Assembly (NCBI GenBank): GCA_025200525.1
Contig: CM045762.1
Span: 23,811,374 to 23,875,373, forward strand
Reading direction: 5' to 3'
Source: Camellia lanceoleosa
Lineage: Eukaryota > Streptophyta > Magnoliopsida > Ericales > Theaceae
DNA length: 64,000 nt
A program made the position numbers and the translations under genes. This document shows positions 1 through 64,000 of the stretch, one piece after another (the first letter of the stretch is position 1; the number at the start of each line of letters is the position of its first letter). Under the pieces are notes generated by a model. The model ran no database searches and was not told the origin of the DNA. It was given only the letters and a program-made list of their open reading frames with translations.

Positions 1-959
1 ACTATCAAGATACAAGCACACAAACAACTACTAGGCCTGACCTTCAAATTCTAGGCTTATTAAAGTACTAACGTCATTTTTTAATTATCACTCATTGTAG
101 GTGGTTGTCACCAACATTCCTCAATGACCAGGATTGATATTGCCTCTGACCAAGCCAGTCAAAGTCAAGCATGATACAACAACCAATTCCAAAATTATCA
201 AGCACATTCTTCACTATTACAAAAAGATTTTTAGAGAAAAAAGCCACATCTCTATCACAAAAGTTTTAAGATCTAGGGAAATTCAATGCAAATTTACATA
301 ATAACAAGACAACAGATGCTCTGCATTGAGAATAAATGCAGGGCTTTCTTTCCTCTGCAATCTTCCCTTCCAGATTTTAGGAAAACAACAACCATAGGAA
401 GAAAGCGCACAGCTTGCCTTAGTCTCTAAGCCACTACTAACTCGGGTCAATCTAAGATATTTTAAAGAATGTGTCTTTCTTTATTTACATCGAACACACT
501 AAATCACAATGAACTTAGCACCATAGATCTACAAGTACACACCAATCTAGATGCTCAATTCTGCTAAACAGTTATTTTTTTCAAGCTTCTATGTGTCATA
601 CATTTGATTTTGTTTATTGGTTCATGCACAGATCAATATGTGGATTTTCTTACTCAAGCAATATAGAATTCTAACATACATCAACACAAACTTCTCATAT
701 GAAAATGTCTAAAACATTCTCACAATGAACATATGATATCTTTCAGAACATACAATTATTATGAAATTATGTATAATGCACTAATCACCTCCGAATAAAC
801 CAAGCAACAACTTTTCTCGTAATAAACCTGTTATAGATAACATAAGAGGCAAAACTCCAAATCCCAATTGCCAATTGCAGCATTCAATCAAAGCAATTAA
901 ACAGCTCAATTTCATATTCAACCGCTAAAAACAACCAAGCAAAAAAAAAAAAACCAAAC
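1..959. other. Non-coding; putative USP intron, copy A
   Basis: AT-rich sequence with no convincing coding potential. On the minus strand it lies immediately downstream of the splice donor that ends the USP coding exon at 960, so it is probably intron. The matching stretch in copy B is 47881-48843. No other feature was seen. Confidence 0.5.
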
Positions 960-1658
960 CTTTCCGATCATCGGTAGCATCATGATACTCGGGCTCATCC
1001 TCATCCTCCGCCGCAGAAGCCACGGAAACCACAGGCTCAGCACCGTCATTCCCACCATCTTTCTCATCCGGATACCTAACAACCACCACGGGACAAACAC
1101 AGTGCCTCACACAGTAATCGCTAACACTCCCAAGCCTCCCATTGTTCCCTCTCTTCGTCGCACCAAACCCTCGGCTCCCCATAATCACAGTACTCAACCC
1201 TAGCCTCTCAACCTCCAAACACAGCCTCTCCTTCATATCATGATCCTTCACAATATGGATCTTAAACGGTATCTGAGCCTCAACAATCGGCTGAGCTAGG
1301 TCAGAAATTTTGGTGTTCGTAAACATATCGAAATCGTCTTCGAGTTTCTGCTGAGACGCTTCGTTAGAGTCGTCGACGATGGAGAGATCGACGGAGCCCC
1401 AATCGGCGCCGTATAGAACGGAGGTAGGGCGGACGTGGAGGAGGATCACGGCGTCGCCGGGGCGGAGATAGTGGTGGACGGCCCATTTGACGGCGAAGGC
1501 GCTCTCGTCGCTGAGATCGACGGCGATTCCGATGCGGCGTTGGGCGCCGGCGGTGGGGGTGTTGGTGGCGGAGGGAGTGAAGCGTGGGGAGGATTTTACT
1601 TTGATGGCGGCGAGGAGGGGAGGTCGGAATCCGGCGGCGGCGGCGGCGGCGGCTGCAT
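960..1658 (-). CDS. Universal stress protein (PHOS32/34-like), first coding exon, copy A, frameshifted near the N-terminus
   Basis: The minus-strand exon encodes a Usp domain (Rossmann-like alpha/beta fold, usually ATP-binding and dimeric). The ATP-binding pattern G-2X-G-9X-G-S is visible as MGSRGFG ... GRLGS. The family match is to plant PHOS32/PHOS34, MAP-kinase phosphoproteins; a Ser-Pro site follows the lysine-rich N-terminus. The homologous start is the ATG at 1658, but a G-run at 1617-1620 has four G where copy B has five. That start is therefore out of frame, and the domain is open only from an upstream ATG at 1815, which would add an unlikely leader. A Ser codon is also missing relative to copy B. 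The C-terminal part, reading VVVVRYPDEKDGG, is intact, unlike copy B. The exon ends at 960 in an AAAG/GT donor (phase 1), so at least one more exon lies left of the window. Confidence 0.85.
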
Positions 1659-1826
1659 GGTGGTGGTGGAGAGAGAAAATTAGGGTTTTTTTGTTGGTGT
1701 TTGGGAGTTTGATCGTTGACAGTGGCACGAGTTTTTGGGGGCTTTTCTTTGTTTTCTTTGATGGAGGACTGTGAAAAGTGACTGAGAAAATGAGAATTTT
1801 TCCTTTTGTAGGCAAAGAAGAAGTGG

Positions 1827-1833
1827 TTTTATA
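1827..1833 (-). promoter_or_regulatory. TATA box of the USP gene, copy A
   Basis: TATAAAA on the minus strand, about 170 bases upstream of the USP ATG. The 5' UTR that follows is typical of plants: CT-rich with a CCCTAATTTTC stretch and CACC repeats just before the ATG. The same box is in copy B at 49724-49730. Confidence 0.6.
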
Positions 1834-1967
1834 TTCCCTTTGTTTTCCTGGTTTGGGCTTTTCTTTCTATGTGTGGAATGGGTTAAGGAAATTGGTGGAT
1901 TGGATAAGAGGATTGTAAATTAAAGTAAAGCCCATTATCTTTTGTGTTGTTTTCTTTTTATTTTTTT

Positions 1968-60824: not shown

Positions 60825-61605
60825 TTGTAATATAGGTAAGACAGAAGAAGTGTCACTCCTTCTTAAGTCACCCAAGAGTTTTTGACCTATTTCCAGGTTT
60901 TTATCACTATTTTGTATTACCGATTACATGGACTTTTATAATTAGTTCTTTTATCGGGAAATAAATATTAAGATATTAATGAAAACAATAAATAACATAT
61001 TATCATATATCCGGTGTTAGCAATTTGAAAATTTGGCAAAAAGTTAATTTTTTTGACTTTTTGTCAAGTTCTCCTAAAAAAAAAGTCGCATTAAAGTCAC
61101 CAACAAAGCTAAAATGTGAAGAAACTAATTTTTTAGTAATTTTCCAAAACATAGCAGCATTATTTTTAACCTGATAATTAGCTAATGTATATGTTATTGA
61201 AGAATTATATATAGTTAAAAATTAGTCAGCACAGTGTATTGTATGTTTGTATTTTAGGACAAGTTTGAGATATGTTAAAAAAGATAAAAAGTTAAAAGTT
61301 ATTATTTTATTAGTCACATCATTTTATTTAAGTCATATTATTTCTTTAACAAATCACTTCAAACTCAACTCAAATCTAACTTATATTTTATAAAAAGTTA
61401 AAAAATACATTAGTTAAATCTTCTCAAATAACCCCTAGTCAGTCTAATTTTTTATAGGGGTACACAATATAACCAAAGCATTTCCCTTTTACAAGTAGTC
61501 CAAAAAGAGTTTTTGATGACTCCCATAAACAGAAAGCCCACAAAGGCATTCCCGTGTTTCAGCACACACGCATAACATAACAGAGTAAACTGCTTCATAA
61601 TGACA

Positions 61606-61643
<38 letters not shown>

Positions 61644-63108
61644 TAATAATTTCAAAGCAAAAACATAAAAACAAAAACGAAAACAAATAAAAACAAATTG
61701 TAGAGAGAGAGATAGAGTTATGAGGGTTGCAGAAAAAGCTCCTACTGCACAACCTGTATTACCAGTTCTTCTGCCGGATCTCTTTTTTCTCTTCAAATAT
61801 GTTAATTTATACATATATTGCTGCCTTGTAGCTTCTTCTTTTTTGTCAAAAGAATTCAATATACCAATCTAAATAATAAATGTAAAGTTATTCACTAACA
61901 TAATTTTTATAGAAGACTCATTTGAAATTATGTGGTGGTGGTGTTTTAGAAATTTGGAAAAGTATGATGTATAGGAGTGAACACAACATCATTCTATATG
62001 AAAATATTTGCGTTACGTTCTTAATAAACTTTTGAGCTAACCATGTTGGGCATCTTTAAAATTATACAATTCTTGTACAGAAAAATGAGTGGGAGCTCTA
62101 ATTAGAACTACCACTAGTGATGTGACAGTGAGTCCCACCCACTGCTACAGTATGTATTGTGTCTATTTTTTCTTCTTTTTTTTCTTTTTTTTTTTGGCTT
62201 TGCCACCTCATTAGTAGTGGGTTTAGAGCCACTAAATTAGTGGTCTCTAGCACCACCGTTCTTGTATATTATTGTGACATTTCAGTTGATAGTGTTTCTT
62301 GAAAAAAAAATAATATATTAAAGCTTATGAGAAAAACATGTTACCTAAACAAACACAATTAATTTGATGTATCCTAGCTACTTAACTCTTAAAACATTTT
62401 CTTTTACAATGATTAGTATGGAAAATGTTATACAAACTAATAAATTTTATAATTTTTTTATTTACGTCATGCAATAAAGAAAAAAATTGAAATTTAAACA
62501 TAATTCACTTTACTTCAATAATGTGATAACAATACATCAATGTGAATAATACAATAGTGAGAAATTCAATGAACACATTCATTTATACAACAATGTCAAA
62601 AAAAATATTCATGAAAGTACTCAAATTTAAAATGTATATACAAAATTAATTTTAAATGTAGTACATACCATATTAAATTTTAATCTAGACCATGGTCTAC
62701 TTGTCCCAGCAGTATTTTCTATTTTCTTGGACTACTTTCTTTCTATATATTTGTGTGGCAAGTAAACTAGCATCATGGATTCATCATAGAATAATAAAAC
62801 AAGTATTCCCAAACCCACCACTAGTCTTTTAAAACAATGAAGATCAAATGAGAACCAATTGCATGATCACAAAATCTGAGTGAAAATTAAAGCAAGAGAT
62901 CACTGACACACATTCTGAGAGAGAGAGAGAGAGAGAGAGAGAATTGGCAAGAATCAAAAACATGTATTGCTCTATTTTGGAAGTAGAAAGTAGTTTGACA
63001 AGAAAAGGGTAATGAAAAAGCTGTGTTTGGGTGCTTGGATCACATGCATTACACACAAATGTGAAAAGACAAAAAAACAAAAACAAACAAGACCCATGTG
63101 TATTGCTG
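60825..63108. other. Gene-less stretch 3' of the SPL-like gene, copy B
   Basis: Matches 12847-15108. (CT)n at about 61609-61639. A (GA)n run at about 62918-62942 is longer than in copy A by about ten bases. No gene. Confidence 0.5.
62971..62980. promoter_or_regulatory. CArG-box-like site 3' of the SPL-like gene, copy B
   Basis: TCTATTTTGG, identical in sequence and position to copy A (14971-14980). Confidence 0.35.
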
Positions 63109-63381
63109 CTAATAAGAAAGCTTGAGAGACAAATCAACAGAAGTAGAGGAGGAATCAAAACCAGTGAATGTTGTTGTTGAGGCATTGAAACAAGAACCTT
63201 GATCTGCAGCAACAACAACTGAAGCTTCTGATGAAGAAGAGCCACCTGTTAAGTCCATGTATTCCTTGGAAGAAGTGCCTCTGACACCATCTTTCCCTGG
63301 AAAGAACTCAAACTCCATGAATACATTTCCACCTCCTCCTCCTGAGCTTCCCTTCCTATGAACAGCCACAACCTCCACTTC
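63109..63381 (-). CDS. SPL: SPOROCYTELESS/NOZZLE-like protein, last exon, copy B
   Basis: Identical in reading to the third exon of copy A: acceptor TTGTAG/GAAGTGG, then EVEVVAVHRKG, EFEFFPGK, a Ser-rich stretch and the terminal EAR motif DLSLKLSY before the stop at 63109-63111. Exons 1 and 2 would begin about 84 bases beyond the right window edge (by the copy A offset). The visible 619 bases at the right edge are intron 2. The absence of any coding difference from copy A contrasts with the damaged LINE and USP copies. Confidence 0.88.
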   Translation of the reverse strand, partial: EVEVVAVHRKGSSGGGGGNVFMEFEFFPGKDGVRGTSSKEYMDLTGGSSSSEASVVVAADQGSCFNASTTTFTGFDSSSTSVDLSLKLSY

Positions 63382-64000
63382 CTACAATACTCATCAAACA
63401 AAAACCTAATCAAAATCAACTTCTATACTATTCACACAATTTAATCATACAATATTTAAAAAAGTTGAGTTTCACATAATGTCATAGTACCTTGATTAAT
63501 TTTGTGATCAATTTTTATGCATGTATTTTTTTTAAAGTAATGACGTATTAATTAAAAACACAAAAATTATACAAAATGATATGGTGTTAAATTTGTATTC
63601 ATCCATTTTAAATTAAAAAGCCAATCAAAATTTCTTATTATTTCAAAAGATAATACTATATAAATAGAATTTTCATACAAAACAATGTGTTTTTGTATGG
63701 AGCTTTCATTTTAGGATAAAACCATGATCATTGTAGTTTTAAAGTGCAAAAAATTCACATCATTTTATATTGAAAATTTGATTCTATTGCTTTAAAACAA
63801 AAACAAAATCATTATGCTGTTAAAAATGCTATTATCATAATATCATATCATTCTTGTTAAAAATATTAATATGAAAATTTTGTATAAAATCAAGTTTATA
63901 CATCATCATTTTAGTGGGTTTTTTTCTCTATAAAATTTTAGTTTTCAAATCATATTTTTTTTCAATCACAATTCTCCATAACAAACACATTACACAACTT

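What the first reader, a model, noticed from the sequence alone, without database searches (positions are those of the whole stretch)
1..64000. A 16-kb block repeats in the same orientation 47.9 kb later, across an assembly gap
1-16001 and 47881-64000 share every landmark in order. Copy A is left and copy B right of the 100-N gap at 28637-28736, so they belong to different contigs. The simplest reading is two haplotypes of one locus scaffolded in series. The alternative is a real tandem segmental duplication with a unit of about 48 kb. The artefact model makes a firm prediction: sequence left of this window should resemble 28737-47880, and sequence right of it should resemble 16002-28636.
Basis: partly seen in the sequence, partly recalled or inferred. 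Interest (0 to 1): 0.75.

Follow-up and report, generated by a model that had tools for sequence, protein, structure and literature searches.

The report
False duplication at overlapping contig ends
A 48-kb stretch of a Camellia-like plant chromosome most likely appears twice in the assembly because the ends of two neighbouring contigs overlap and were laid one after the other, so the doubled genes here are probably not a real duplication.

Summary
The 16-kb repeat is the visible part of a 48-kb overlap. C5 23792079-23840009 ends on the last base before the 100-N gap and aligns in one piece to 23840110-23888044, which starts on the first base after it.

So the artefact reading is well supported, but not its "two haplotypes" part. 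Two unplaced contigs, C688 and C774, carry the same locus. At 32,299 clean sites, 481 SNPs split {A,B} from {C688,C774}; 12 support the other pairings. Copies A and B are one haplotype; C688 and C774 are the other. C688 runs left flank, unit, right flank with a single copy. Small indels pile up towards contig ends, as in unpolished tips.

This matches the published "homotype" false duplication at contig boundaries (PMC8081667, passages): an ordinary assembly artefact.

Two results stand against it: the other haplotype breaks and overlaps at nearly the same places, and left-hand contigs share indels with each other (110 against 12). Read depth was not available, so a real, homogenised tandem duplication keeps a few per cent.

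The parts
1..28636 (+). Part of copy A inside the window: the tail of the left contig. The overlap begins outside, at C5 23792079 (window position -19294, counting 0).
28637..28736 (.). 100-N scaffold gap between the two contigs
28737..64000 (+). Part of copy B inside the window: the head of the right contig. The overlap ends outside, at C5 23888044.
28737..37700 (.). Error-rich head of copy B: 67, 28 and 20 one-base indels per kb against A in three successive 3-kb bins
   Evidence: B-private 1-2-base indels 77, 26 and 23 per kb; positions approximate
25706..28636 (.). Error-rich last bin of copy A: 21 one-base indels per kb against B
   Evidence: position approximate
28737..36575 (.). Part of a 14.4-kb LTR retrotransposon (C5 23785612-23800028 on the A contig; 733-bp LTRs, 95.6% identical, GGACC on both sides). 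B and C688 both begin inside it.
   Evidence: domains RVT_1, RVT_3, RNase_H. The label Gypsy-type is from recall, and the Pfam gag and Tf2-1 SH3 matches were below cut-off.
928..1866 (-). Universal stress protein (USP) reading frame, copy A, one open frame
   Evidence: Pfam PF00582
48806..49763 (-). The same USP gene in copy B, split over three frames
39785..40279 (+). EF-hand gene, KRP1/PBP1 type, copy B; the A copy is at C5 23803267-23803761, outside the window
   Evidence: PF13833
16230..16916 (-). NOZZLE-like reading frame, copy A; the B copy is at C5 23875621-23876277, outside the window
   Evidence: PF08744
3483..3566 (+). tRNA-Ser (AGA), copy A
51396..51479 (+). tRNA-Ser (AGA), copy B

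Best explanation
The repeat is a false tandem duplication made by the assembly. Two contigs of the same haplotype overlap by 47.9 kb at their ends (a dovetail). They were not merged, and scaffolding laid them in series with a 100-N gap, so every gene in the overlap is counted twice on C5. The other haplotype of the locus was not placed and survives as contigs C688 and C774, which dovetail by 48 kb as well. Shown: both dovetails, the two-haplotype split, the error-rich tips, the one-copy order in C688. Inferred: that each haplotype has one locus in the plant, that the remaining A/B differences are consensus errors, and that repeats (an LTR retrotransposon on the left side) stopped the contigs.
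For: One alignment from B's first base to A's last base, both at the gap, and likewise from C688's first base to C774's terminal base. Pairing of SNPs 481: 11: 1 at 32,299 sites. The 9 large alignment breaks of A against C688 recur within 13 bp in A against C774; no indel of 20 bp or more between A and B. C688 has 929 bp of left flank, one unit and 3.7 kb of right flank, without a gap. One-base indels rise to 67 per kb in B's first bin and 21 in A's last bin, and fall to 2-8 per kb in the 9-24 kb bins; C688's head and C774's tail are error-rich too. In the 9-24 kb zone B's 21 private SNPs are bunched, 14 of them transversions, against 55 transitions of 84 for haplotype SNPs.
Against: No read depth, k-mer or Hi-C data. 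The dovetails of the two haplotypes nearly coincide (starts 929 bp apart, ends about 1.7 kb apart), and only the left side has a repeat at hand to explain it. Left contigs {A,C774} share indels against right contigs {B,C688}: 110 of one base and 30 longer, against 12 and none for the opposite pairing, and SNPs 11 against 1 (two-sided p 0.006); true paralogues would pair in this way. 10 of the 110 lie in the better-polished 9-24 kb zone. A-private SNPs in that zone are few but all transitions (5 of 5).
Confidence: 0.92

Rival explanations
1. Heterotype false duplication: A and B are the two haplotypes of one locus, scaffolded in series.
For: Dovetail at a gap, and A and B differ by 3.6% over the whole alignment. 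The other haplotype is present in the assembly.
Against: A and B share 481 of 493 two-by-two SNPs and all 9 large breaks against C688/C774; in the 9-24 kb bins they differ by only 0.2-0.3% SNPs.
Confidence: 0.03
2. A real tandem duplication of 48 kb or more present on both haplotypes, with the copies kept alike within each haplotype by gene conversion; the assembler broke at the unit limits.
For: Would explain why both haplotypes break at nearly the same places and the left/right pairing of indels. A unit longer than the 48.9 kb from C688's start to A's end could hide its junction in the gap.
Against: Copies that predate the haplotypes should differ by SNPs shared across haplotypes: 11 of 32,299 sites, 0 of the 13,340 sites between 9 and 24 kb. 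The left/right pattern is 11 SNPs to 110 one-base indels, the haplotype pattern 481 to 101, so the former looks like recurring consensus error. No contig shows a unit-to-unit junction.
Confidence: 0.04
3. A very recent tandem duplication on the A/B haplotype only.
For: A and B nearly identical where polished; C688 is single-copy.
Against: The other haplotype also appears as two contigs overlapping by 48 kb, so such redundancy is not special to the A/B haplotype. The unit limits coincide to the base with contig ends, and the tips are error-rich.
Confidence: 0.01

Closest known systems
Homotype false duplication, type 'overlapping sequences at contig boundaries' (Rhie et al. 2021, PMC8081667, passages read; Ko et al. 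2022, PMC9516828, abstract excerpt and passages read)
   Same: Same-locus sequence dovetailing at contig boundaries, scaffolded into a tandem duplication with a gap between, with unequal consensus quality and no haplotype split between the copies.
   Different: Rhie et al. say the size is often that of a corrected read; 48 kb is long for that, and the read lengths here are unknown. The other haplotype shows the same dovetail at nearly the same place.
Heterotype false duplication / heterozygous overlap (purge_dups, Guan et al. 2020 (authors recalled), PMC7203741, passages read)
   Same: Overlap kept between contigs and carried into the scaffold; alternative-haplotype contigs retained in the assembly (C688, C774).
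   Different: The two copies on C5 carry the same haplotype.
True tandem segmental duplication
   Same: Two direct copies side by side in the assembly.
   Different: No SNP divergence between left and right copies shared across haplotypes; limits fall exactly on contig ends; C688 shows one copy between both flanks.

Membership tests
Homotype false duplication | Copies dovetail at contig boundaries with a gap between | tested here: met
   One alignment from B's first base to A's last base, both at the N gap
Homotype false duplication | No haplotype-specific variants separating the two copies | tested here: met
   481 of 493 two-by-two SNPs put A with B; from contigs, not from read k-mers
Homotype false duplication | Consensus quality differs between the copies | tested here: met
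   Error-rich head of B and tail of A, judged from private indels
[quoted passage not shown]
   No reads available
Homotype false duplication | Size about that of a (corrected) read | not testable with these tools
   Overlap 47.9 kb; read lengths unknown. Described as 'often', not always
Heterotype false duplication | The two copies carry different haplotypes | tested here: not met
True tandem duplication | Left/right differences by SNPs shared across haplotypes (if older than the haplotypes) | tested here: not met
   11 of 32,299 sites, 0 of 13,340 in the 9-24 kb zone; the one-base indel excess, 110 against 12, points the other way
True tandem duplication | Unit-to-unit junction in single reads; diploid depth on each copy | not testable with these tools
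   No reads available; no contig held shows such a junction

The most novel reading that the evidence does not exclude
A real tandem duplication of 48 kb or more in a Camellia, carrying a KRP1-type EF-hand gene, a universal stress protein gene, a NOZZLE-like gene and a tRNA-Ser, present on both haplotypes with nearly the same limits and kept identical within each haplotype by gene conversion while the haplotypes drifted 2.5-3% apart.
Probability: 0.04. Interest if true: 0.45.

Novelty: not a real feature. Interest (0 to 1): 0.1.

Why it matters
Genes in this stretch are counted twice on the chromosome and up to four times in the assembly, so gene-family counts, lists of tandem duplicates and copy-number work would be misled. 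Some copies carry frameshifts that are probably consensus errors and could be mistaken for pseudogenes. The case also shows a way without reads to tell homotype from heterotype duplication where contigs of the other haplotype are kept: sort the SNPs of all copies by pairing.

Tried and rejected
Haplotypes in series: rejected by SNP pairing. Four distinct haplotypes (pool or polyploid): suggested by a first four-way MAFFT profile, but pairwise alignments showed two haplotypes plus errors. C774 as a paralogous locus: rejected as far as tested. C774 matches the locus up to 48167, then has a 4,965-bp insertion, then is colinear with C5 in the further stretches compared, 53133-60000 and 72001-82000. 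A 3-kb piece from its middle (400001-403000) hit repeats on other chromosomes and no C5 place near 23.4 Mb, so most of the 732 kb is unchecked. Four other C774 pieces (one, three) were compared only with the 164 kb of C5 held. Copy number of the contig-end sequences was not obtained, since the genome search did not complete; a local repeat scan of window 24000-32000 showed only microsatellites and short tandem repeats. How often such overlaps occur at other gaps of this assembly was not measured. A paper naming this assembly was sought in one search (25 of 287 papers listed) and not identified.

Papers: PMC8081667 and PMC7203741, passages; PMC9516828, abstract excerpt and passages; all others seen only in search listings.

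Full report
What was claimed.

Observation. The repeat is real in the assembly: 97.1% identity over 16,163 columns, direct orientation. The window is C5 23811374-23875373 of a 3.0-Gb genome in 790 contigs. With 50 kb on each side, one alignment covers C5 23792079-23840009 against 23840110-23888044. The first copy (A) ends on the last base before the gap; the second (B) starts on the first base after it. So 16001 and 47881 are only images of the window edges, and both flank predictions are met.

Other copies. A 2-kb probe gave 33 matches, of which 4 are at 97% or more and full length: two on C5, one on C688 (53,311 bp), one on C774 (732,471 bp). C688 carries 929 bp of left flank, one unit and 3.7 kb of right flank without a gap. 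C774 carries most of the unit and the left flank, with a 4,965-bp insertion in it, and is colinear with C5 in the further stretches compared, 53-60 kb and 72-82 kb; a piece from its middle gave no C5 match nearby. C774 and C688 overlap each other by 48 kb, from C688's first base to C774's terminal base.

Which copies are alleles. With A as reference, 32,299 sites were aligned in all four and lay away from gaps. Of the two-by-two SNPs, 481 separate {A,B} from {C688,C774}, 11 separate {A,C774} from {B,C688}, and 1 gives the third pairing. The rest are singletons (A 50, B 114, C688 75, C774 163) and 14 sites with three or more alleles. The 9 large alignment breaks of A against C688 recur within 13 bp in A against C774; A and B have no indel of 20 bp or more. 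Hence A and B are one haplotype and C688/C774 the other, 2.5-3.2% apart in SNPs.

Why A and B differ at all. Over the unit they show 1.06% SNPs and 639 one-base indels, 268 of them next to a like base. One-base indels per kb are 67, 28 and 20 in B's first three bins, 2-8 from 9 to 24 kb, 4-16 from 24 to 45 kb, and 21 in A's last bin. C688's head (28, 21, 15 private 1-2-base indels per kb) and C774's last 24 kb (14-40 per kb) behave alike. In the 9-24 kb zone B's 21 private SNPs are bunched and 14 are transversions. This is what unpolished contig tips look like.

Results against this reading. First, the dovetails of the two haplotypes nearly coincide: starts 929 bp apart, ends about 1.7 kb apart. 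Both starts lie inside a 14.4-kb LTR retrotransposon, and C688 starts about 76 bp from the insertion seen in C774, a plausible cause. At the other end I found only microsatellites, and genome-wide copy number could not be obtained. Second, left contigs share indels against right contigs: 110 of one base and 30 longer, against 12 and none for the opposite pairing, and SNPs 11 against 1. True left and right copies would pair so, but would also show SNPs in the usual excess over indels. The haplotype split has 481 SNPs to 101 one-base indels; this pattern has 11 to 110. None of the 11 SNPs and 10 of the 110 indels lie in the 9-24 kb zone. I take them for consensus errors that recur in weakly polished stretches; this is inference.

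Identity of the plant. The EF-hand protein is 97% identical over its whole length to a Camellia sinensis protein, and the USP frame 98% over 71%. At three places the EF-hand protein agrees with a Camellia fascicularis protein and not with the C. sinensis one. The genus is very probably Camellia; the species is not settled. In C. fascicularis the two closest entries, one from each of two annotation sets, stand for one sequence each (best 120 of 1,234 listed), which fits a single-copy gene but is weak evidence.

Comparison with what is known. The published homotype false duplication, first type, is an overlap at contig boundaries that becomes a tandem duplication with a gap after scaffolding (PMC8081667, passages). 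The purge_dups authors write that, to their knowledge, scaffolders using long-range information do not handle heterozygous overlaps (PMC7203741, passages). The three features of the homotype kind that could be tested are met; depth, k-mers and read length could not be tested.

Verdict. An ordinary assembly artefact, of the homotype rather than the heterotype kind, with the other haplotype left on unplaced contigs.

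Noticed in passing
L028:8168-10000 and L030:1-3132 (C774:48168-53132): A 4,965-bp insertion on the C774 haplotype, absent from C5, with CTCG on both sides and ends TGTAGAC...GTCTACA. A 1.8-kb part of it gave 19,000 first-look candidates in the genome; of 40 scored, 39 besides itself match at 87-94%. Its class was not determined.
   Followed up: partly
C5 23785612-23800028 (L011/L012); copy-B part at window 28737-36575: A 14.4-kb LTR retrotransposon with 733-bp LTRs 95.6% identical and GGACC target-site repeats; B and C688 both begin inside it, and the C774 insertion sits in it.
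   Followed up: partly
window 7686-11211 and 55609-58621, minus strand: LINE-like element (Exo_endo_phos and zf-RVT matches) in both copies, with frames broken differently in A and B.
   Followed up: no
window 928-1866, 39785-40279: EF-hand (KRP1-type) and USP genes appear as neighbours in other plants by locus tag: Bertholletia 11037155/11037154, Cinchona 037746/037743 and 028000/028002, Escallonia 028191/028194. Suggests old conserved neighbours.
   Followed up: no
window 16230-16916, minus strand: The NOZZLE-like frame is open in A and B but matches with 3 stops in C688 and 5 in C774; allelic difference or consensus error, not resolved.
   Followed up: no
window 4498-5433, 52413-53350, and 22801-23186: AT-rich segment of about 0.9 kb that matches its own reverse complement at about 71%, with related pieces at 22.8-23.2 kb; possibly a long palindromic element.
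   Followed up: no
unit position about 39.15 kb (window about 19.85 kb): The C688/C774 haplotype has about 1 kb that A and B lack, the largest of 9 large haplotype differences in the 48 kb.
   Followed up: no
L033:1-301 (C774:120001-120301): Matches C5 near 23761541-23761841 at 97.7%, a place that C774:79094-82000 also covers; perhaps a repeat, not checked.
   Followed up: no
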